64,000 nt of DNA from Candidatus Melainabacteria bacterium (GTDB taxonomy: Bacteria > Cyanobacteriota > Vampirovibrionia > Obscuribacterales > Obscuribacteraceae). Both the position numbers and the translations under genes were made by a program. The notes beneath the pieces were generated by a model that saw only the letters and a program-made list of their open reading frames with translations, searched no databases and was not told where the DNA came from. The stretch is from assembly GCA_003963305.1 (NCBI GenBank), contig RXJR01000018.1, forward strand, positions 254,247 through 318,246, given 5' to 3'. Of this stretch, positions 39,423 to 50,028 are shown one piece after another; within the stretch, counting starts at the first letter, position 1, and each line of letters opens with the position of its first letter.

Positions 39423-42400
39423 TTAATTTTCAGAATCGCGCTTGCTCTTTAGTTTGAAGAGCGTAATGTCGTTGTCTGACTGTGAAAAGTCGAGCAGGCT
39501 GGGCATTTGCAAGGCGCTGCTTCTGTTTTGAAATCCCGGGTCAAATTTTAAATCTCGTGACTCGGCAAGCCGTGACAGGCTTTCATCTGAGTCTAACCTG
39601 GGCACCTCGTCTCGAGCGAATTTCAGCCATTCTGTCAGAGTCACTATGGCATCTTTTGGCGCGCTATCGGCGCGTCCATCGTCGGCCAATCCTTCATTGA
39701 GCAGTGCGTAGGTCAGTAACCCGTGTCCGAGCGATTCGCGTTCTTGAGCAGTGCTGGCTGCCTGGCTGGCGAAGAGAAGTCGCATTTTTTTGTAGTAGGC
39801 GAGTTGTCCCAGACCCGGGCTATCCATCGGACCCGGCTTGAATTCTTTACCGGGAGCCGCGCCGGAGTGGCAGGCATCGATAATCATCGTCAGGTTCGAG
39901 ACGTCGAGATCTTTTAGCCAGTCTGTCATTTCGGCAGTGCTGATGCAGTGATTCTTCAAGTCGTCAGTCAACCCGGTACTTTGTGATTTGCCGATGTCGC
40001 TTGGAAATAAATAGAACTCCCCGGTCTCTTTGTCTGTTGTGCCGTGAGTGGCAAACGAGAGCAGTACGAAATCTTCTGCGTTTGCTTGATTGAGACCGGC
40101 TTCTTGCAGCAAGCGGGCAATTCGTGGATCTGTCGGCGACTTGCCGGAGAGGGCTTGAATAACTGCTTTTATACTGGCTTTTGTCGGGGTGAGGGCGCTC
40201 TCTTCATTATTGTCTGTGGTGACGCACACGGGGATTACCTCTTCGAAGTTTCCCGAATTCTCCAGGTCCGAGACCAGCTTCGATTTCGTGTGTACGTCGC
40301 CTGCGAATTCTCGGGCATCTGATGCGGCGAAATTGAGATTCAGTTGTTCATTCTCGAATTGATTGACACCAAATGCGATGACATAGGCGCGCCTTTTTCT
40401 CGCGGCAAGTGGTTTCGCCAGTTCGTATATCGTGGACTTTGTCTCGCTCTTTACTTTGTCACAATTGAACGCGAAGGCGCTAAAGACATATTTGGTTGAA
40501 CTGTTGTGTGGTAGTTTGATTTTGAAGGTGTGCGACTGCACAGTGTCCGAGCCACCGCTCACATCTGCTTCCGCACTTTTCGCATCGGTGCCGTCGGTGT
40601 GAGAAAGGTCCGACTGTGAAAGTGAGCCGACTAACTGTCCGTCTCGAAACAAGCACAGATCGTAAACTCCACTTCTGACTGTGCCTTTTAGAGAATTTGC
40701 GGAATTTTTTTGTGTGCTTAAGATTGGGCTCGCGTCTGATTTCCCGGACGTTCGGTTCTGGCTTGAACTTTTGAACGAAACTGTTACGGCAACTTGATCT
40801 GGTGAGCCTGGCACAGGCGCAATTTCTAGATTTGTAATTAGCGGTTGCACCGTAGTCAATTTTGTCAACTCAGGCAGGGGCGCAAAACTATCTTGATTGA
40901 CCAGGCGCGGTAGCAGATTCGGTTCAAAGAACTGTCTGAGAAAAATTTCCGGCGGCAGTGGTGTCATTGGTTCTTCCGGACGCAACCAGGCAAGAGATGA
41001 TATCTGCTCCAGGTTATTAGTGTCGAAGCGACCATCTTCTGTAATCACCGCCCAGCTGTCCTTCTCGCTCTCGGTTTGAGGGAGGGTGATCATCGAGCAT
41101 ATTTGTTTCTTAGCTGCGGGATTCCACAGGCTGATCAAACCGTTTTCGCAAGCACTGACAAGTTGCGTATCATTCTTGTTAAAACACAGTGAGTTTATTT
41201 TGCTCTGCAAATTTCCCAGTGCAGTTGATTTTTGCTGATCAGACAGATTGACTATTTTGATGTCACCACCGGAGGTGCCAAGGGCAATCCTCGTGTTCGT
41301 GCTGGAAAATGACAGCGCTGTGATAGCATCGTCTTGCTTATCGATGGTCTGGACCAGCTTGCCGCTGTCGACCTCCCAGATTTTAGCGTTGCCCAGGTCG
41401 TCACTGGCGGCGATCAACTTACCATCGTTACTGAAGGCGACTGCCCATAAGTAAATATCTGCCGCATCATTGAGATAATATGGCTGGAAAGCCTGGATCT
41501 TGCGGACTATTTTTTTTGTGTAGTTATCGTAAATCAGAATTGCGCCCAGCCCATCACCCAGTGCCGTTCTGGTGCCGTTGGAAGAAATCGTGACGTTGTC
41601 GCCTATTCCCGGCAGAAATTGTTCCGAGACTTTCTTCCCTGAGTTGATGTCGAATATGGATGCACAGTGCTCCTTGTTTGTGCCGACAATGACCCTTTGC
41701 GTTCCGTCGTCAAAGGCTACTGCACCTATAGAGTTGATCGTTTTGAGATTGCCTGGATGATTTTTCCTGTCCATCATTTCAGTAATATGAAGGTTGCCGT
41801 TGTTGCTGCCGCTGGCTAACTTCTTGCCGTCTGCCGAGAGGCGCAAGCAATTGATTGAGTCAGTGTCGATTTGAATACGTTGCGGTTGGCTGTCCTGTCC
41901 CGGTTTCCAGAAATAAAGAGAACCGTTTTCACTTCCAGCTATTATCTGGGACGAATCCGGACTGATAACGACGACGTTGACGGCATTGTTCGGGTGGCCG
42001 AGTCTTGCTTGTAATGCGCCGGTTGTCGCGTTCCAGAGTTTGACTGTCTTATCCTCGCTCGTGGTGGCAATAGACTTTCCGTCCGGGCTGTAGCTTACGC
42101 TTCTAATCGCCTCTGTATGTCCGGCGATTCTCGCTTCTACGGTGCCGCTTGTGGTATTAAAAATGGTGGCGCTTCGTCCGCCGTCGGCTGCCAGGCAGTC
42201 TGATACGACTATGTGCGAGTCGTCCGGGCTGAAGGCGCATGAAAAGCGATTTATGCCGTCGACACGATTGACTTGAGTTCTCTCGCGGAGCGCAGACACT
42301 TCTAAATCTGCCGGCTTTTGGTCTGCATTTTTCGATGCAGATATCTGTTCTGTCTGAGCAGACTTCGGAAGCTCGAGTAATTTTGTTTTCTGTCCCGTTG

Positions 42401-43373
42401 TCATATCGAACAGGTAGAGCTTGCAGTCGATTTCAATTGCTGCCATTGGCTTGCCGTATCCATAGGCAATTGGCGGGTGGAGCGCCTCGATATTTTTCAG
42501 AGTCCAATCTTTTGATGAGCCTTCCCGACTGAATGCGTTGCAGATCATCATGTGTTTTGCGGGGATGGTTAATGCCATGCAGCGCACGTCTGAAGCGAAC
42601 GAGGCGGTGGGAAACTGACCATCGAAAGTCTGCAGGAAGAGTCTTGCTTCCACGGGCTTCAATGTGTTTCCGTGTCTGGAGCCGTCAGTGCGTCCACCTT
42701 GAGTCTTGTGCATTTTCATCGGCAAGATATCTTCAGTTACTGTCAAGCCTTTCATAAGCGGTGGAATCTGCTCTGCGCTCGGCATCCAGGAGATCAAAGA
42801 AGCATCTGTATAGCGGGCAAAAATTGATTTATCCGGTGCAAAAGCGACCTGCTCAACCGCGTTGTAGCCGAATTTTTCTCGCCAGGTGCTGTCGAAAGTG
42901 TTGATATATTTGCGGATCGGCTTGCCATCTGTCAGGTTCCAGGTGATTACCAGATCGTCCATGCCACCACTTACGAGTTGGCTTCCGTCATCATTGAAAG
43001 CAATAGAAATGACAGGATCTCTGTGTCCGGAAAGAGTGCGAATCAATCTCCCCGTCTTCGTTTCCCAGATTCTGATAGCGTTGTCGCGACCGCCTGTGGC
43101 AATCAGTTTGGAATCAGGACTGAAGGCGCAGGTCAGGACTCCGTCGGTGTGACCTGATTGCACGACCAGTTGAGGAAGACGGTTTAAGTTGTTTTGCTTG
43201 CTGTTCGACTGTGTTGTGCTGTCGGCAGATGACTGCGCCAGAGCGCCCATGGGCAGAATCGTGGTTGTTAAAGCGGCAATCACCATCAACGAGGCGATGA
43301 ATTGATTATGTTTCTTCACTTGAATCCACGGGGCGACAAGTGACATTCTACTGTTTTTCGGCGACGAGCACAT
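39423..43373 (-). CDS. Exported WD40-repeat protein with C-terminal caspase-like (C14) domain
   Basis: 1316 residues. The N-terminal hydrophobic signal (FIASLMVIAALTTTILPMGALA-QS) comes after a short extension. WD40 repeats run from ~70 to ~800 (SGHTDGVLTCAFSPDSKLIATGG..IRIWETKTGRLI; AGHTEAIRSVSYSPDGKSIATTSEDKTVKLWN), enough for one or two beta-propellers. A beta-rich linker follows, then a caspase-fold peptidase (~1010-1260): RRAYVIAFGVNQF, catalytic His ~1110 in SFATHGTTD, catalytic Cys ~1168 in MIIDACHSGAA. C14 proteases of this kind act as regulated processing enzymes, often with WD40 or other repeat sensors. What is notable is the signal peptide, pointing to the periplasm or outside. It is convergent with the response regulator 8 bp away. 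Confidence 0.9.
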   Translation of the reverse strand: MCSSPKNSRMSLVAPWIQVKKHNQFIASLMVIAALTTTILPMGALAQSSADSTTQSNSKQNNLNRLPQLVVQSGHTDGVLTCAFSPDSKLIATGGRDNAIRIWETKTGRLIRTLSGHRDPVISIAFNDDGSQLVSGGMDDLVITWNLTDGKPIRKYINTFDSTWREKFGYNAVEQVAFAPDKSIFARYTDASLISWMPSAEQIPPLMKGLTVTEDILPMKMHKTQGGRTDGSRHGNTLKPVEARLFLQTFDGQFPTASFASDVRCMALTIPAKHMMICNAFSREGSSKDWTLKNIEALHPPIAYGYGKPMAAIEIDCKLYLFDMTTGQKTKLLELPKSAQTEQISASKNADQKPADLEVSALRERTQVNRVDGINRFSCAFSPDDSHIVVSDCLAADGGRSATIFNTTSGTVEARIAGHTEAIRSVSYSPDGKSIATTSEDKTVKLWNATTGALQARLGHPNNAVNVVVISPDSSQIIAGSENGSLYFWKPGQDSQPQRIQIDTDSINCLRLSADGKKLASGSNNGNLHITEMMDRKNHPGNLKTINSIGAVAFDDGTQRVIVGTNKEHCASIFDINSGKKVSEQFLPGIGDNVTISSNGTRTALGDGLGAILIYDNYTKKIVRKIQAFQPYYLNDAADIYLWAVAFSNDGKLIAASDDLGNAKIWEVDSGKLVQTIDKQDDAITALSFSSTNTRIALGTSGGDIKIVNLSDQQKSTALGNLQSKINSLCFNKNDTQLVSACENGLISLWNPAAKKQICSMITLPQTESEKDSWAVITEDGRFDTNNLEQISSLAWLRPEEPMTPLPPEIFLRQFFEPNLLPRLVNQDSFAPLPELTKLTTVQPLITNLEIAPVPGSPDQVAVTVSFKSSSQNRTSGKSDASPILSTQKNSANSLKGTVRSGVYDLCLFRDGQLVGSLSQSDLSHTDGTDAKSAEADVSGGSDTVQSHTFKIKLPHNSSTKYVFSAFAFNCDKVKSETKSTIYELAKPLAARKRRAYVIAFGVNQFENEQLNLNFAASDAREFAGDVHTKSKLVSDLENSGNFEEVIPVCVTTDNNEESALTPTKASIKAVIQALSGKSPTDPRIARLLQEAGLNQANAEDFVLLSFATHGTTDKETGEFYLFPSDIGKSQSTGLTDDLKNHCISTAEMTDWLKDLDVSNLTMIIDACHSGAAPGKEFKPGPMDSPGLGQLAYYKKMRLLFASQAASTAQERESLGHGLLTYALLNEGLADDGRADSAPKDAIVTLTEWLKFARDEVPRLDSDESLSRLAESRDLKFDPGFQNRSSALQMPSLLDFSQSDNDITLFKLKSKRDSEN

Positions 43374-43412: not shown

Positions 43413-44141
43413 CTAAGAGCAGAGTTTGATTATGTGGGCGACGACTTCGTCAACCGTCATTTTGTCTGAAAGAATTGCTACCGCGTCATCGGCCATTCTC
43501 AACGGAGCAATTTCCCTGTTAGTGTCCATTTGATCGCGTTCGATAATGTCTTTCAACAACGTGTCATAATCAGGATTTTCTCCTGCCGCCTGCAGTTCCA
43601 GCAGACGTCTCTGGGCTCGCACCGCAGGTGATGCGGTGAGGAATATCTTGATATTGGCGTCAGGTAAAACCACCGTGCCTATGTCTCGTCCATCGAGTAC
43701 GACTCCGCCAGCCATGGCCAGATGTCGCTGCTGATTGACCAGTTGCTCTCGCACTGCACCAATTGCCGCCAGTTTACTGACCAGCTTGGTGATGTTTTGA
43801 GAGCGAATCAGTTTGGTCACTTCTTCACCATTGACGAAGACGAGAATTTTTTCTTCATCATGACCGGGCTTCAGTTCGATTTTCGATTCGGCCACAGCTT
43901 TAACGATTGCATCTCGATCGTCAAAACTGATTCCTTTTTGTACTACAAGCCACGTGGCGGCGCGATACATGGCGCCTGTGTCGATGTATAAGTAATGCAG
44001 CGCATCGGCGATTTTTTTGGCAACTGTTGATTTCCCAGCTCCGGCTGGTCCGTCAATGGCTATCTGCAAGGTTTTAGACACCCCTGCAGCAGCGTTCCTA
44101 TTGCGAATCTGGTCTTCAGAAATCACCATGCGGGTTACCAA
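43413..44141 (-). CDS. cmk: Cytidylate kinase
   Basis: A 242-residue enzyme that phosphorylates CMP/dCMP for nucleic acid and lipid precursor synthesis. P-loop AIDGPAGAGKSTVAKKIA, then YIDTGAMYRAAT, GGVVLDGRDIGTVVLPDANIKIFLTASP and RDQMDTNREIAPLRMADDAV are all characteristic. The first ~22 residues before TLQIAIDGP are longer than usual; the frame starts with TTG at 44141 and an in-frame ATG four codons later. It lies 59 bp after a DUF4388-like gene on the same strand and is probably the last gene of that operon. Confidence 0.95.
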   Translation of the reverse strand: MVTRMVISEDQIRNRNAAAGVSKTLQIAIDGPAGAGKSTVAKKIADALHYLYIDTGAMYRAATWLVVQKGISFDDRDAIVKAVAESKIELKPGHDEEKILVFVNGEEVTKLIRSQNITKLVSKLAAIGAVREQLVNQQRHLAMAGGVVLDGRDIGTVVLPDANIKIFLTASPAVRAQRRLLELQAAGENPDYDTLLKDIIERDQMDTNREIAPLRMADDAVAILSDKMTVDEVVAHIIKLCS

Positions 44142-44200: not shown

Positions 44201-45127
44201 TTATTTAGGTTTCTGAGATGTGCTTCGCTTTATGGTCGGTTGGCGGGCTGTGGTCGCTCCGGTTGACACGGGAGCGGGTCTGGCTCCCATGATTTGATGT
44301 TCTTCCAGGTAAACGCTCAGCGGTTTCCAGAAAATAATGGCCATACATTCCATGACAAAGAGGACTCCCACTGCTCCTATAATCAGCATGGGAGAAAGCC
44401 CGCCTGTGTTGCGTTTCCCCGGACGTATTTTAGTGTCGGAATCTTGATTGGTGCGCGGCAAAGTAAGGCTGGCCAGTTCTTCTGCGGAAATCGGCTCGAT
44501 TACTCTAGTGCTGGGCACTGCCGAAGGCTCAAGTTCAATACCTCCCGCAGGAGCAATACTGCCGACAGGAGCTATACCTGCAACGGGTGCGAAACTTCCA
44601 GCAGGAGCGATACCGTCTCCAGGCGCTACCAGCGGCTGCAGGAGCTGCCAGCTGGCATTGGGATTTTGTGGTTTTATGTCCACAACTTGCGGCTTGGTAG
44701 CAGCTCGTTCTTCCAGCGCATCGAAAGCATTGGCTCCAAAGACTTTGTCCAGAAGCGACTTCTCGTCATGAAGTCCGTTGGGCGATTCTGGCAGATTTGG
44801 AACCAGCGGCAATATTTTCTCCAGCTCGATGTTGAGAGAGTAAGGAATGCTCAGGCTGTCGTCAGAACTAGGTCTGAGACAGGCGAAATTTCCATCTTTG
44901 ATGCTGAGCAACTTCCGCACTGCCGGGTAGCCGCTTTCGCGGGTGTTGGAAATTATCGCGGCAGTAATAAATCTGCCGTCGACAATACAGATCTTTCCGT
45001 CACAATCACGAGTGCTGGTTGCGACCCGCAGGAGTAAATTTCCCGAGGGTCGCTTTTCCAGGACTTTCTGCAGCACATTTTTCAGCTGCACATCATCTGT
45101 CAGGCGACCCTCGAAAACAACATCCAA
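44201..45127 (-). CDS. DUF4388-like N-terminal domain protein with Ala/Pro/Gly repeats and a membrane helix
   Basis: 308 residues. The N-terminal ~110 residues (FEGRLTDDVQLKNVLQKVLEKRPSGNLLLRV, ICIVDGRFITAAI, GYPAVRKLLSIKDGNFACLRP) look like the DUF4388/PATAN-type domains often tied to type IV pilus or surface-motility regulation. Residues 171-197 are four copies of a G-[IS]-[IF]-A-P-[AV]-G-like heptad. One transmembrane helix at ~245-268 (LIIGAVGVLFVMECMAIIFW) is followed by a short basic tail. The start is TTG with AAGG 8 nt upstream. It sits 29 bp downstream of the selW-like gene. Role unknown. Confidence 0.6.
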   Translation of the reverse strand: MDVVFEGRLTDDVQLKNVLQKVLEKRPSGNLLLRVATSTRDCDGKICIVDGRFITAAIISNTRESGYPAVRKLLSIKDGNFACLRPSSDDSLSIPYSLNIELEKILPLVPNLPESPNGLHDEKSLLDKVFGANAFDALEERAATKPQVVDIKPQNPNASWQLLQPLVAPGDGIAPAGSFAPVAGIAPVGSIAPAGGIELEPSAVPSTRVIEPISAEELASLTLPRTNQDSDTKIRPGKRNTGGLSPMLIIGAVGVLFVMECMAIIFWKPLSVYLEEHQIMGARPAPVSTGATTARQPTIKRSTSQKPK

Positions 45128-45156: not shown

Positions 45157-45516
45157 CTACCGTCGTGCGGTGCTGCTACCTCGGTCCAGGAATCCTTTGA
45201 ACCATTCCATAAAAGGCATTGGCTTGTGGGCGTTCGCTCCGGCCTTTGCCTGAGATTCCTCAAGACCCATGCCTTCCGACATGTACCTGACTATCTCTAA
45301 TATTTCCCCGTCCTCGGGAAATCGTCCCAGTTCTTTTTTAGAAAAGATGAGAAAGTCACGATCTTGTACTTCGAAAACTCCGCCTGAAGACTGAATCAAT
45401 GTCGAATCTTCCTGCAGTTTTTCTTCGAGCTCAGCAGCCAACCTGACCGCTTTTTGCTTATAGCCTCACGCACCGCAATACGTGATTGTGAACCTGCTTT
45501 GTCTCTTGTCTGCCAT
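45157..45516 (-). CDS. SelW/Rdx-family selenoprotein, Sec encoded by in-frame TGA
   Basis: 119 residues, reading through one in-frame TGA (45466-45468) as selenocysteine. The start is ATG at 45514-45516, with GAGG 8 nt upstream. The N-terminus then reads MADKRQSRFTITYCGAUGYK, where U is residue 17: the CxxU redox motif of SelW (vertebrate SelW has YCGAUGYK). The rest is the Rdx thioredoxin-like fold: KAVRLAAELEEKL, SSGGVFEVQDRDFLIFSKKELGRFPEDGEI. If TGA is taken as a stop, only a TTG-started fragment from 45441 remains, lacking the active site and any good start signal. Family members are small cytoplasmic thiol/selenol oxidoreductases of uncertain substrate. It is 13 bp downstream of the coiled-coil gene at 45530 and shares an operon with the DUF4388-like and cmk genes. 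Proof needs the genome's selABCD genes. Confidence 0.88.
45434..45468 (-). promoter_or_regulatory. Putative bacterial SECIS element with the Sec UGA codon
   Basis: The UGA is at 45466-45468. Fifteen nucleotides after it, GCGGUC (45450-45445) and GGCUGC (45439-45434) pair over six positions (four Watson-Crick, two G-U) around the 5-nt loop AGGUU. Bacterial SECIS elements bound by SelB are short coding-region hairpins placed about 11-16 nt after UGA with GU in the apical loop; the E. coli fdhF element has GGUC there. Position, size and loop fit that model. Confidence 0.65.
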
Positions 45517-45529
45517 CTTGTTACCTCAT

Positions 45530-46213
45530 CTACTGTTGGGGCTTGCCTACAAAAATTCGTTTCCACCAGGGCATATTCAATACTTCTTGATACTGGTTTT
45601 TCAAGGCGATCAGATCCTTCTGAGCCGCTATAAGTTCCTCTTTCAGTTTTGCAGTTTCCTGAGCGTTGTCTTTCAAAAGGCGCATAGATGATTGCAATTC
45701 GCTGAGCAATCGCAAATCTTCCAGATGGGCGCGTCGCTCCTCGGAGAGTTCTTTGTGCGTGGCTGCCAGCTCGCGCAGCAAGTGCAGCTCCATCATTGGT
45801 TTAGCAAACGCCAGTTTAGATGCCGCTTTCGAGATGATCTGGCGGGTGGTGGATGGGGAAGACTGAGGCGTCTCGCGGTTGGCCTCCACGACGCTGTGCT
45901 CGGTCTCACGGTTGTGGTCGTACAGAGCTTGAAGATTGAACCCGAGCGGGGGAGTTATTTCCCACTCCTCATTGTCGTTGATGATTACCTTGCGGGCAGT
46001 CCAGCCATCCGGTAATTTGTTACCCCATTTGCCGGAAAGGCTGCGTTCCAGTGCACGCATCGACTTGCCCAAGGCAAAAGCAGCATCTTTCAAATTGAGG
46101 GTGACCGGTTGTTCCATGTTTCGTTCAACTGAGATTTGAGGCTCTGCCTTCATTTCATAGTCAGGGTAAATCTCGAATGGTTCTATTACTGGCTTTGTGG
46201 CGTCTTCGATCAT
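45530..46213 (-). CDS. Protein of unknown function with helix-turn-helix-like and coiled-coil regions
   Basis: A 227-residue protein. Residues ~38-80 (TLNLKDAAFALGKSMRALERSLSGKWGNKLPDGW) resemble an excisionase/MerR-like helix-turn-helix. Residues ~130-215 form a long coiled coil (LLRELAATHKELSEERRAHLEDLRLL, KLKEELIAAQKDLIALK), ending in a Trp-rich basic segment (MPWWKRIFVGKPQQ). There is no signal peptide. A DNA-binding or phage-type regulatory role is possible, not proven. It is the first gene of the apparent operon with the SelW-like selenoprotein (13 bp downstream). AGGA lies ~9 nt before the ATG. Confidence 0.6.
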   Translation of the reverse strand: MIEDATKPVIEPFEIYPDYEMKAEPQISVERNMEQPVTLNLKDAAFALGKSMRALERSLSGKWGNKLPDGWTARKVIINDNEEWEITPPLGFNLQALYDHNRETEHSVVEANRETPQSSPSTTRQIISKAASKLAFAKPMMELHLLRELAATHKELSEERRAHLEDLRLLSELQSSMRLLKDNAQETAKLKEELIAAQKDLIALKNQYQEVLNMPWWKRIFVGKPQQ

Positions 46214-46346: not shown

Positions 46347-46961
46347 TTACTTGATCAGGCGTGACTCTACAGCTGCCCAGTCGATGTTGCTGAAGAAAGC
46401 TTCGATGTACTTCGAGCGTTCTGCAGGTTTGTAGTCGAGAAGGAAGGCGTGCTCCCAGACGTCCATAACGAGAATAGGCGCGAAACCGGCAACGTTGCCT
46501 TCTTCGTGTGAGCTTATCCAGTGGTTGGAGAGAGTCTTGGTGAATGGGTCCTGGAACAAGATGGCCCAGCCCACACCACGCATTGCGCCTACTTTGCAGA
46601 AATCGTTCTTCCAGACTTCCAGGCTGGAGTAGACTTCCTGCAACTTGTTGCCGATGGCGCTCGATTCTTTCAGTTCAGAACCGCCAGACTTCATGTTGCC
46701 GAAGTAGTACTCGTGCAAGCGCATGCCGTTGTATTCCCAGCCGTAGCGGCGTTTTATTTCGTTATATTCAGGTTGTCCTGATTTGCCTGCTTCTGTCAGT
46801 TCAATGATTTTTTCATTCAAAGCATTTGTGTTTTTGACATAGCCGGAATACAAGCCAAGATGTATTTCGAGAGTTTTGTCGGAGATGCCGGTCAGATTCT
46901 TCAGGTGTGAGAAGTCTTTCTCCGCATATGGTTTGTATGAAATTTTTTGCTGTACGGTCAT
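46347..46961 (-). CDS. Iron/manganese superoxide dismutase, divergent
   Basis: A 204-residue enzyme that dismutates superoxide to oxygen and hydrogen peroxide. The four metal ligands are recognisable: His in TLEIHLGLYSGYV, His in GMRLHEYYFGNM, Asp and His in VMDVWEHAFLLDY. Compared with typical Fe/MnSODs, the segment after the first ligand is one residue shorter and lacks the KHH residues of the usual xHHxxYV motif; the second ligand is in LHEYYF, not NHxxFW. ATG 46959-46961 is preferred to the adjacent ATG 46962-46964 because AGGAG is 6 nt away. No signal peptide: cytoplasmic. Its own terminator follows at 46286-46319. Confidence 0.85.
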   Translation of the reverse strand: MTVQQKISYKPYAEKDFSHLKNLTGISDKTLEIHLGLYSGYVKNTNALNEKIIELTEAGKSGQPEYNEIKRRYGWEYNGMRLHEYYFGNMKSGGSELKESSAIGNKLQEVYSSLEVWKNDFCKVGAMRGVGWAILFQDPFTKTLSNHWISSHEEGNVAGFAPILVMDVWEHAFLLDYKPAERSKYIEAFFSNIDWAAVESRLIK

Positions 46962-47061
46962 CATGTTCTCCTATTCAGAACAGTAAGTTCCGGGGCGTTT
47001 GATAGTTAGCGTCAATAAATACCATAAATCTATTTTCAAGATGTTGAAAGCTAGATTAATC

Positions 47062-47154: not shown

Positions 47155-50028
47155 CTAGATTTTTGGTCCGAGCTTGGGCATCAGGTCACTCAGTCGTTTC
47201 TTTGGCTTATCTTGCTGTTCGGCGTGCTCTTCTTCGCCGTCGGAGAACAGATCCATCGGACCCTGTGAGGCAGCCGGTTCAGCTTGAGGGGGTTGGGCCT
47301 CAGGCGGGCCTCCCTGCAACGACTGAGCTGCCTCCTGGAACATTTGTGCGGCCGGTGAATTGGGCATTGGTTGCCATGCTTCTTGATTGGTTGCAGATGG
47401 ACTCTGCCAGCCTGGAAGTGGGCTTGGTGCTGCGGCTTGCCAGTTTGGTTGAGCTGGTGCTTGTGCCGGCATATCCGGAGGCGCTCCCCAGGCTGATTCT
47501 TGCGGGGCTGCTGAAGTCGGTGGCTGCCATTCAGTCGGGGCGGGAGCGGCTTGCTGCTGCGGCTGCTGTTGCTGCGGCTGCTGCTGGTTTGCCCAGTCAG
47601 ATTGCATAGCGGGCATAGACTGCGAAGAGCTGGCGGCCCAGTCTCCTTGCTGTTGAGGAGGTGCCGGCTGTTGGGGGGCTTGCGGTGGCTGTTGTTGGGG
47701 GGCTTGTGGTGGCTGTTGTTGGGGTGGCGCAGCCCATTCGCTTGCAACTGCTGGTGCTGTTGTTGATCCCCACTCAGGTTGCGGCTGTGGCGCTTGAGCT
47801 TCCCACTCAGATTGAGAAGCAGGTTGCGGTGCCGCCCAGTCTGCTTGTTCAGAACTTTGTGCCCATTCATTTTGTGATGGCGCTGAAGGTGCTGGCGTGC
47901 TACCCGCCCACTCACCCGCTGCTGGTTGCGGCTGACCAGGCGCTGCTGGTGCCGCCCAGTCGGAGGCTCCGGCGGCCTGACTCCATTCAGCTGGCGCCTG
48001 ATTCTGAGCTGGTTGAGCAGCTTGCTCATGCACAGGCCACTCTTGCGAACTGGTTGATTGCCAGTCGCTCGCGGCTGATGGCACACCGGTGGCTGGTCCG
48101 GGCGTTGCTGGCGCGCTGAAGGCCGGCTGTTGCGCCTGTTGAGGTGGTTGCATCTGCGGTTGTGGTGCTTGTTGCGGTGGCTGAGGGGCTTGCGGCGGCT
48201 GTTGCCCTTGTTGTGCTTGCCCACTCTGCCATGCATCCGCTGTCATCTGGGCCTGGCCAACTGATTGCCACGTATCACTTTGTGCTGGTTGAGCCGCTTG
48301 AGCTGGCGGCGCTTCCGCTTGCTGTACATCGCTGGGCTTGGGCATCCATTCATCCGGAGACGGCGAGTGCCAGGCGTCTGCGCCTGCGTTCGTCAGGTCG
48401 GGCGCAGGTGCTGAAAATGCTGCTGGCGCCTGCTGAGGCTGTTGCTGCGCAAATTGTGGCTGATTGATAGATGAGCCAAATTCTGCAAGAGCATCTGCTT
48501 GTGCCTTTGCGTTGGCTGCCGCGCCCTGGTCGAATGGATTCGATGTTTGTGCTCCTGCATCGGGTGTTCCGGCGGGACTGAACGCTGGAGCAGTTGCCTC
48601 CGCGGCGCCTGTTTGGGCTGCCTGTGCAACCGGCTCTGCCGCGGGTATAGATTGCGCCGTGGTATCGGGATTCTCTGCCGTTTTGGGCTGACCGGCACCA
48701 GCCTGAGCTTCAACCATCTGGGCGGTTGTGTCGGTTGGTGTCTCAGCTGTACGTGGCTCCGGCGTCTCGATGAGCGCTTCCGGCACACCCGGATCTGCGC
48801 GCAGAGGAGCAGTATTCCAGCCAAGTTCATTGAATGCTTGTTCGAGAGTGAAATTGTTGCGCTCGCAGTTTTTGAGCACGATCATGCCTTGCTCATGGTT
48901 GAGGACTCCCGAGGTGATCAGGTCGTTGCATTTTTCTGCTGCATCAACCAGGGCCGAGTCCATAACACCTGACAGTCTGAGCATTTTCGCCATGATGGCT
49001 GTGTCTTTGGAGCCAACTCGAATCGCTTGCTCGATATCTTTGGCGGTGATGATGCCGGAGAGCTGCAAGAATTGATACAGATGCAGCGGCTCAATCGCCG
49101 GCATCGGCGGCTCTTCTGGTGGGGCCGCAGCAGCTGATTTCTTCTTGGATGGTTTTTGATGGCTGATGGCGATAGCTTCGCCAACTGACACCTTCTTTTG
49201 TTTAACCGTGCCGAGGAATTTTGCCGCCTCATCTTTTTTGATGGCGCCGGCACCAACCATTGCCTGCAGGTCAAGAGCTGCGTCAAGAAGTTCCTGGGTA
49301 ATCAGATTTGTCTGCAGAAGTACCTGCCCGACAGGTTGTTCTTGCAGCAGACCGACCTCAACAGCGCTCATCAGCGCTTGTTCGTCGACAAGTCCGGCCA
49401 TCACGAACAACTCTCCAAGGCGCACTGTTTCTGCAGTCGGCAGGCTCAATGCCCCGGTTTCGGCCAGATATTGCTCGATTGGAATTTGTCTCTCTTTGGC
49501 GGAACGCAGCCCCTGAATAGCTTGCTCGCGCGTCAGTTTTTTGTCGCGGATAAATACCTGTGCGTTCAGAACCGCTGTCAGCATCTGTTCTGTCAGATTT
49601 CCATTACCGACAAGCACTCTTCCCAGCGGTAATCCGATCGACTGGCACTGCAAAAGAGCTGCATTCAAGGCGTCAATAGGAACAATATCTGCCGCCAGCA
49701 GCAGTTCGCCCAGTTTATTCGTGACGGCGTCTGACTGTTGATTCCATTTCAGTCGTTTGAACGCCTCTTCCAGAGTGATGTCTTCAGTACCCACCATTGT
49801 CAGGGCTTTGATTACCAGATCGAACTCAATCAGTCCGTCTTTGAGTAGCGACTGTGCTTGCACGGCCGCTTGCAAGTGCTGCTCCGTCAGATAACCTGAC
49901 ATGATCAAGACACGTCCTACAGGCAGCCCCTGCTGCTTTGAAATCATCATCGCTTCGCGTAGGTCCGAAGCTTGCAGGAGCCCTGCTCCTGTTAGTAAGT
50001 CACCCAATCTGACGCCGTCGCTGGTCAT
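47155..50028 (-). CDS. Protein with four GspE-N-like repeats and a long Pro/Gln/Trp-rich tail
   Basis: 957 residues, no signal peptide. Residues 1 to ~400 contain four repeats of ~90 residues with pattern RLGDLLxxAGLLxxxxLxxAxxxxxxxGLPxGRVLxxxGxLTxxxLxxAxxxQ, like the N-terminal domain of GspE/PilB-type secretion ATPases (T2SSE_N/MshEN), but no ATPase domain follows. Residues ~430-900 are low-complexity (Gln, Pro, Ala) with regularly spaced Trp in SEW/ADW/EW contexts. It ends DGEEEHAEQQDKPKKRLSDLMPKLG. In MshE-type ATPases this N-domain can bind c-di-GMP, so a signalling adaptor for pilus/secretion is a possible role, as inference only. The low-complexity tail is likely disordered. Confidence 0.65.
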   Translation of the reverse strand: MTSDGVRLGDLLTGAGLLQASDLREAMMISKQQGLPVGRVLIMSGYLTEQHLQAAVQAQSLLKDGLIEFDLVIKALTMVGTEDITLEEAFKRLKWNQQSDAVTNKLGELLLAADIVPIDALNAALLQCQSIGLPLGRVLVGNGNLTEQMLTAVLNAQVFIRDKKLTREQAIQGLRSAKERQIPIEQYLAETGALSLPTAETVRLGELFVMAGLVDEQALMSAVEVGLLQEQPVGQVLLQTNLITQELLDAALDLQAMVGAGAIKKDEAAKFLGTVKQKKVSVGEAIAISHQKPSKKKSAAAAPPEEPPMPAIEPLHLYQFLQLSGIITAKDIEQAIRVGSKDTAIMAKMLRLSGVMDSALVDAAEKCNDLITSGVLNHEQGMIVLKNCERNNFTLEQAFNELGWNTAPLRADPGVPEALIETPEPRTAETPTDTTAQMVEAQAGAGQPKTAENPDTTAQSIPAAEPVAQAAQTGAAEATAPAFSPAGTPDAGAQTSNPFDQGAAANAKAQADALAEFGSSINQPQFAQQQPQQAPAAFSAPAPDLTNAGADAWHSPSPDEWMPKPSDVQQAEAPPAQAAQPAQSDTWQSVGQAQMTADAWQSGQAQQGQQPPQAPQPPQQAPQPQMQPPQQAQQPAFSAPATPGPATGVPSAASDWQSTSSQEWPVHEQAAQPAQNQAPAEWSQAAGASDWAAPAAPGQPQPAAGEWAGSTPAPSAPSQNEWAQSSEQADWAAPQPASQSEWEAQAPQPQPEWGSTTAPAVASEWAAPPQQQPPQAPQQQPPQAPQQPAPPQQQGDWAASSSQSMPAMQSDWANQQQPQQQQPQQQAAPAPTEWQPPTSAAPQESAWGAPPDMPAQAPAQPNWQAAAPSPLPGWQSPSATNQEAWQPMPNSPAAQMFQEAAQSLQGGPPEAQPPQAEPAASQGPMDLFSDGEEEHAEQQDKPKKRLSDLMPKLGPKI

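What the first reader, a model, noticed from the sequence alone, without database searches (positions are those of the whole stretch)
45157..45516. SelW-type selenoprotein with in-frame UGA, mis-read as a truncated ORF by standard calling
The SelW/Rdx frame extends upstream through a single TGA to an ATG with a GAGG ribosome binding site. The TGA falls exactly at the second redox position: TYCGA-U-GYK, identical in layout to the CxxU motif of SelW. Without readthrough the protein lacks its active site and begins at a TTG with no start signal. Seen directly: frame, TGA, start and ribosome binding site. Known: SelW CxxU. Inferred: selenocysteine insertion.
Basis: partly seen in the sequence, partly recalled or inferred. 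Interest (0 to 1): 0.93.

Follow-up and report, generated by a model that had tools for sequence, protein, structure and literature searches.

The report
Hidden selenoprotein W in non-photosynthetic cyanobacteria
A small redox-protein gene that standard gene calling cuts short carries an in-frame UGA followed by a conserved RNA hairpin, in a genome that holds the selenocysteine-insertion genes, so the UGA is likely read as selenocysteine, in a branch of the cyanobacterial phylum, a phylum that reviews list as lacking this amino acid.

Summary
On the minus strand (45157-45516) one frame runs from an ATG with a GAGG site through a single TGA (45466-45468) into an Rdx/SelW domain; with TGA read as a residue the motif is CGAU. 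The genome has tRNA-Sec, selA, selB and selD. Of 56 homologous places in 38 genomes (own included), 39 have TGA at exactly this codon, 15 Cys, one Ser, one a small insertion. The 39 share an 8-pair hairpin beginning 14 bases after the TGA, with near-fixed codon choice (GTC 33/33, AGG 21/21, AGT 17/17) that the Cys copies lack: a bacterial SECIS. The two genomes with only non-UGA copies have neither strong tRNA-Sec nor selA, and carry Cys or Ser in the same gene neighbourhood (sod, X, selW, cmk). Of 120 listed database homologues 62 start after the UGA, 56 show Trp there (probably UGA mistranslated) and 2 Cys. SelW-type bacterial selenoproteins are known, one confirmed by proteomics in Campylobacter. 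New: this member, its conserved C-terminal extension, its neighbourhood, and Sec decoding in non-photosynthetic Cyanobacteriota. Selenium itself was not measured.

The parts
45157..45516 (-). selW-like coding sequence with TGA read as selenocysteine, 119 aa, TAG stop
   Evidence: Pfam Rdx 65 bits (cut-off 22.6); TIGR02174 55.6 bits (cut-off 34.2)
45466..45468 (-). in-frame TGA, codon 17, second redox position of CxxU
   Evidence: TGA in 39 of 56 homologous places, Cys in 15
45433..45451 (-). SECIS-like hairpin, 8 pairs with loop GGU; the mis-called TTG start begins in the loop
   Evidence: 95.3% of cells paired, double-sided changes at column pairs 21/33 and 18/36; not kept in 15 Cys copies
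45524..45527 (-). GAGG ribosome binding site 7 bases before the ATG
   Evidence: among 39 UGA copies ATG in 38 and an SD-like word in 38, by my permissive pattern
45160..45276 (-). C-terminal extension beyond the Rdx domain (residues 81-119)
   Evidence: Rdx match ends at residue 77; F102 and W105 nearly invariant in A3; helices 85-92 and 103-111 in the model, low confidence towards the end
45530..46213 (-). upstream gene X (227 aa, no Pfam or NCBIfam family), likely co-transcribed
   Evidence: found beside 25 of 26 long UGA copies
46347..46964 (-). Fe/Mn superoxide dismutase family gene
   Evidence: Sod_Fe_C 79.2 bits (cut-off 20.9); in the fetched flank of 12 of 26 long UGA copies
44201..45127 (-). 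downstream 308-aa gene without a Pfam or NCBIfam family
   Evidence: beside 13 of 26 long UGA copies
43413..44141 (-). cmk, (d)CMP kinase
   Evidence: TIGR00017 256.3 bits (cut-off 135.55); beside 23 of 26 long UGA copies

Best explanation
This gene encodes an Rdx/SelW-family protein whose in-frame UGA is likely decoded as selenocysteine, a step that the conserved hairpin just downstream would direct. Shown: the frame, the UGA at the position where homologues have Cys, the hairpin conserved at the nucleotide level in UGA copies and not in Cys copies, and selA, selB, selD and tRNA-Sec in the genome. Inferred from the well-studied bacterial pathway: SelB brings Sec-tRNA(Sec) to the hairpin and the ribosome inserts Sec at codon 17, giving a CGAU thiol/selenol redox pair on a thioredoxin-like fold. 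Inferred, weaker: the protein would serve thiol redox or oxidative-stress chemistry, given the CxxU motif and the neighbouring superoxide dismutase gene.
For: Frame, TGA, start, RBS. Rdx and TIGR02174 above cut-off. tRNA-Sec 71.8 bits, called tRNA-SeC with anticodon tca by ARAGORN; selB 336.6 bits; selA 529.8; selD 366.8 followed by yedF. TGA at the same codon in 39 of 56 homologous places, Cys in 15, Ser in 1, insertion in 1, TGG in none. Hairpin in the 39 (37 distinct): 95.3% of cells paired, 25 cells with double-sided changes against 9.0 in shuffles, 0 of 500 shuffles as high, slid versions 14-56% paired; 55.0% paired in 15 Cys copies, no better than shuffles. Codons in the hairpin against codons from residue 28 on: Val GTC 33/33 against 48/186, Arg AGG 21/21 against 12/118, Ser AGT 17/17 against 19/291, Leu TTG 36/39 against 55/296. 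Among 50 genomes of the family, UGA copy and tRNA-Sec of at least 60 bits: 34 both, 2 UGA only, 5 tRNA only, 9 neither (nominal p 3.5e-5). The two genomes with only non-UGA copies lack strong tRNA-Sec and any selA match. TGA is a normal stop here: 12 of 42 mechanical ORFs of at least 150 aa in the window end in it. Fold: SelW-related PDB entries lead the Foldseek list.
Against: A single hairpin is not more stable than shuffles of itself (z -0.66, -0.04, 0.16), and RNAalifold's covariation term is small (-0.55): six of eight pairs have no double-sided change, pair 18/36 fails in 9 and 21/33 in 4 of 37 rows, so much of the support is codon constraint, and rows are related. G129 (88% complete, has selA) and G111 (75% complete, selA not over the cut-off) have the UGA copy but no strong tRNA-Sec. 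Five genomes have tRNA-Sec but no SelW found. Of the 58 listed database homologues that reach codon 17, 56 have Trp there and 2 Cys; I take Trp for UGA translated by another code, but their DNA was not seen. The Campylobacter-type equivalog NF041051 is missed (80.4 of 88 bits). No bSECISearch run; no selenium, peptide or activity data.
Confidence: 0.94

Rival explanations
1. The UGA is a true stop and translation restarts at the TTG 45441, giving a 94-aa protein without the CxxC/U site.
For: Standard calling reads it so, and 62 of 120 listed database homologues start after codon 17, 55 of them at the residue of this TTG.
Against: The restart TTG has no spaced ribosome site and begins in the hairpin loop; ITYC or ITFC precedes codon 17 in 56 of 56 places, and ATG and an SD-like word are each present in 38 of 39 UGA copies; the Cys copies in the same gene neighbourhood are one uninterrupted frame.
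Confidence: 0.03
2. The TGA is an assembly error for TGC/TGT.
For: The window is one draft assembly.
Against: Same TGA in 39 places of 36 genomes. The named records L025 and L026 hold the same DNA as G055 and G142 of that set, so they are not extra cases.
Confidence: 0.005
3. UGA is reassigned to Trp or read by general suppression.
For: 56 of 58 listed database homologues that reach codon 17 have Trp there.
Against: In the 56 places whose DNA I saw, none has TGG: 39 TGA, 15 Cys codons, 1 Ser codon, 1 insertion. 12 of 42 large ORFs in the window end in TGA. The Sec genes and the hairpin fit Sec. I take the database Trp for UGA read by a caller that used code 4 (inference; the DNA of those entries was not seen).
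Confidence: 0.015
4. The Sec machinery inserts Cys rather than Sec at this UGA for part of the time (thiophosphate route at low selenium; recalled, not tested).
For: Same UGA-SECIS decoding would be used.
Against: No evidence here either way.
Confidence: 0.03

Closest known systems
Bacterial SelW-like selenoproteins (TIGR02174/PF10262), e.g. Campylobacter jejuni SelW on CJnc60
   Same: CxxU-type SelW with a UGA read by tRNA-Sec; missed in annotation; C. jejuni SelW full-length translation supported by Ribo-seq and proteomics (PMC11955535, passages)
   Different: About 80 aa in C. jejuni; here 119 aa with a conserved C-terminal extension; below the NF041051 cut-off; different phylum
Minimal bacterial SECIS hairpin of Epsilonproteobacteria
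   Same: Short hairpin a few bases after the UGA with an invariant G in the loop (PMC4607533, passages)
   Different: There 5/6 pairs; here 8 pairs with loop GGU or GUU (one copy GUC) and an almost fixed sequence
SelW-related proteins of Pseudomonas, Agrobacterium, Vibrio (PDB 2obk, 2fa8, 2p0g)
   Same: Same fold, TM-score up to 0.82 by target length
   Different: That these are Cys forms is recalled; sequence matches end at query residue 77 or 78, before the extension
Human MIEN1 (C17orf37, 2ljk)
   Same: Best sequence match in the PDB, residues 8-87, E 4.3e-8; Rdx membership recalled
   Different: Matched stretch has CEPC; eukaryotic protein

Membership tests
Rdx / SelT-SelW-SelH (PF10262, TIGR02174) | Profile score above the curated cut-off | tested here: met
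   65 of 22.6 bits and 55.6 of 34.2 bits, with C for U
Rdx / SelT-SelW-SelH (PF10262, TIGR02174) | CxxC or CxxU at the first strand-helix turn | tested here: met
   CGAU at 14-17, between strand 9-14 and helix 20-34 of the model
Rdx / SelT-SelW-SelH (PF10262, TIGR02174) | Thioredoxin-like SelW fold | tested here: met
   AlphaFold2 model (mean pLDDT 78.1; block means 86-92 over residues 11-80); SelW-related PDB chains first, E 1.3e-5
NF041051 SelTWH_Campy equivalog | Score above 88 bits | tested here: not met
   80.4 bits
Bacterial selenoproteins | In-frame UGA aligned with Cys of homologues | tested here: met
   39 TGA, 15 Cys, 1 Ser, 1 insertion of 56
Bacterial selenoproteins | SECIS stem-loop with G in the apical loop close after the UGA | tested here: met
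   contrast. Thermodynamic z-score of the single element not significant; bSECISearch not run
Bacterial selenoproteins | selA, selB, selC, selD in the genome | tested here: met
Bacterial selenoproteins | Selenium in the protein | not testable with these tools
   needs 75Se labelling or mass spectrometry

The most novel reading that the evidence does not exclude
Selenocysteine decoding is an old trait of the cyanobacterial phylum that survives only in its non-photosynthetic branches, and in this family it is kept largely for one or two SelW proteins: an extended SelW fixed in a sod-X-selW-cmk oxidative-stress locus, where Sec gives way to Cys or Ser once the trait is lost or a second UGA SelW can take over.
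Probability: 0.25. Interest if true: 0.7.

Novelty: new member of a known kind. Interest (0 to 1): 0.5.

Why it matters
Papers of 2006, 2015 and 2022 say that Sec decoding was not detected in, or is lacking from, Cyanobacteria (passages). Here the trait and a selenoprotein in a conserved locus are spread through a family of the phylum; the window's own genome shows no reaction-centre gene. The locus is a natural experiment: the same gene neighbourhood with Sec, Cys or Ser in relatives, and no strong tRNA-Sec or selA in the two genomes that have only non-UGA copies. It also shows an annotation fault: 62 of 120 listed database homologues are cut off after the active site and 56 bear Trp in it.

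Tried and rejected
Single-sequence folding of the hairpin gave no significant stability; only the comparison across copies was informative. Rfam's own 47-bit cut-off for tRNA-Sec was too lax (187 of 289 genomes passed, many in the printed part of the list at 47-50 bits, and 5 of 14 control genomes); I used at least 60 bits and E <= 1e-11, where of the 14 controls only E. coli and M. jannaschii remain. A covariance model of the hairpin (R1) found only this gene clearly in the own genome (E 2.7e-17; next 0.142); the ten weak hits showed, by my eye, no convincing TGA-interrupted protein. The model is trained on SelW codons, so this does not exclude other selenoproteins. Formate dehydrogenase alpha: two matches, neither over the cut-off, neither with an internal stop. 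Genome contigs gave only two loci. Rows dropped: A2 leaves out the Ser copy L071 and the insertion copy L069 (15 of 17 non-UGA rows). The structure alignment A3 holds 36 sequences: P0001, two named loci and 33 of the 120 listed database proteins. A first count of mine (119 of 120 database homologues without CxxC) was too coarse, since it missed full-length rows with Trp; the recount is, and I raised the Trp rival from 0.01 to 0.015 for it. A first wording of the novel case (Cys whenever a second UGA SelW exists) was mended: G072, G075 and G127 keep UGA in both copies. Papers: search listings; passages only of PMC1794560, PMC2398784, PMC9312934, PMC1088965, PMC9529120, PMC11955535, PMC4607533, PMC5029168, PMC5322559.

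Full report
Observation. On the minus strand, 45516 to 45157, a single frame runs from ATG through one TGA (codon 17) to TAG. GAGG lies 7 bases before the ATG, and 13 bases separate the upstream gene's stop from it. Standard calling begins at TTG 45441 and loses the active site. The read-through protein scores 65 bits against Pfam Rdx and 55.6 bits against TIGR02174; the Campylobacter-type equivalog NF041051 is just missed.

Machinery. The assembly (G000, 95% complete, 4.7% contamination) has one tRNA-Sec over the cut-off (71.8 bits; anticodon tca), selB, selA and selD. tRNA-Sec sits about 500 bases from a gene that I recognise as rpoB (recalled, not scanned), so it is unlikely to be a contaminant. 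SelD has Cys at the usual Sec/Cys place (GGCAAK; place recalled) and is followed by yedF, a selenium-metabolism gene.

Homologues. In 289 genomes of the class, 38 have a match, all in the window's own family. I fetched all 56 places. The codon at position 17 is TGA in 39, Cys in 15, Ser (AGC, G089) in one and disrupted by a small insertion (G117) in one. The named records Cyanobacteria bacterium SZAS-4 (L025) and Candidatus Melainabacteria palsa_1080 (L026) have the TGA; their DNA contains the fetched stretches of G055 and G142 letter for letter, and both of these are same-genus genomes of the window. SZAS-4 is Cyanobacteriota in NCBI taxonomy. The family name Obscuribacteraceae is my recollection, not a result.

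SECIS. In the 39 UGA copies (37 distinct rows), columns 18-25 pair with 29-36 (TGA = columns 1-3), with loop GGU or GUU in most. 95.3% of cells pair; cells with double-sided changes are 25, against 9.0 in shuffles and at most 5 in slid versions. Column pair 21/33 runs through UA, CG, UG, GU, AU and GC and fails in 4 of 37; 18/36 fails in 9. In 15 Cys copies the same columns pair in 55.0% of cells, no better than shuffles. Codon choice is nearly fixed inside the hairpin and free further on: GTC 33/33 against 48/186, AGG 21/21 against 12/118, AGT 17/17 against 19/291, TTG 36/39 against 55/296. Rows are related, so the nominal p values (9e-17 to 5e-20) overstate the strength, but the freedom of the codons further on shows that relatedness alone does not fix them. 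A single copy folds no better than its own shuffles.

Trait association. In the 50 genomes of the family, 34 have both a UGA copy and tRNA-Sec of at least 60 bits, 2 UGA only (G111, G129), 5 tRNA-Sec only (G083, G115, G121, G125, G144), 9 neither. selA passes its cut-off in 35 of 50; G129 has selA, G111 does not. The two genomes whose only copies are non-UGA (G089 Ser, G097 Cys) lack both strong tRNA-Sec and selA.

Neighbourhood and history. The extended form lies in a conserved run sod - X - selW - (308-aa gene) - cmk: of 26 long UGA copies, 25 have X, 23 cmk, 13 the 308-aa gene and 12 sod within the fetched flanks (about 1.2-1.5 kb, shorter at contig ends); ten non-UGA copies lie beside cmk too (X 8, sod 5, 308-aa gene 0); the 13 short UGA copies and 7 other Cys copies have none of the four. 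On the protein tree with codon 17 masked the UGA label needs 3 changes against 14.8 in shuffles. In genera g9 and g10 the long copy in this place has Cys (or the G117 insertion) while a separate short copy keeps UGA; G059 of g9 shows only the short UGA copy. Against a simple take-over rule, G072, G075 and G127 have UGA in two copies each.

Fold and function. AlphaFold2 gives strand-helix-strand-strand-strand-helix with block-mean pLDDT 86-92 over residues 11-80 and low confidence at the C-terminal end. Foldseek puts SelW-related PDB entries first; by sequence human MIEN1 is best. A thiol/selenol redox role follows from family knowledge; partner and substrate are unknown.

Known and new. [quoted passage not shown] jejuni (PMC11955535, passages). 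Three papers say Cyanobacteria lack the trait or that it was not detected there (PMC1794560, PMC5322559, PMC9312934; passages). In the passages of a 2016 survey of 5200 genomes (PMC5029168) I saw only orphan SelD in Prochlorococcus for this phylum. One paper mentions a single Sec-bearing database protein of Candidatus Melainabacteria, PWT95605.1, whose identity I did not see (PMC9529120, passages). I found no paper on selenoproteins of this lineage beyond that in the searches (20 of 47 papers listed). In 386 genomes drawn across the phylum, 8 have tRNA-Sec at E <= 1e-11, the own genome included; none of the 8 has a match to the photosystem reaction-centre family PF00124, which the Synechococcus control shows. 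I did not search PF00124 in the other 378, so the link between the trait and the lack of photosynthesis is suggestive only.

Databases. The large protein set gave 170 homologues, 120 listed. Of the 120, 62 start after codon 17 (55 of them at the residue of the hairpin's TTG), 56 reach it and show Trp, 2 show Cys; 29 of the best 30 are of the first, cut-off kind. In the 56 places whose DNA I read, TGG never occurs, so I take the Trp for mistranslated UGA, unproven.

Noticed in passing
G289, G293, G299, G305, G307, G317, G323: Seven further genomes of the phylum, in three other families, have strong tRNA-Sec and no PF00124 reaction-centre match: Sec decoding may be confined to non-photosynthetic branches.
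   Followed up: partly
L071 (G089), L069 (G117): Long SelW copies whose active site is changed (Ser at codon 17; insertion giving CTSLIDC); G089 has no strong tRNA-Sec, G117 has one.
   Followed up: partly
L066, L067, L068, L070, L072, L073, L074, L075, L077, L078, L080, L082, L085: Thirteen short UGA SelW copies in relatives with the same hairpin; in L072 and L077 the gene precedes one that looks like ferrochelatase (recalled, not scanned).
   Followed up: partly
L028:1468-3193: selD overlaps yedF (TIGR03527) in the own genome, a likely selenium operon.
   Followed up: yes
P0010, P0047, P0059 and 53 more of P0002-P0121: Database homologues with Trp at the Sec position, probably UGA read by code 4 in the source; their DNA was not seen.
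   Followed up: partly
window 39423-43373: Large protein that looks like WD40 repeats plus a caspase-like domain (motifs recalled, not scanned).
   Followed up: no
window 47155-50028: 957-aa protein with a long Gln/Pro-rich C-terminal half.
   Followed up: no
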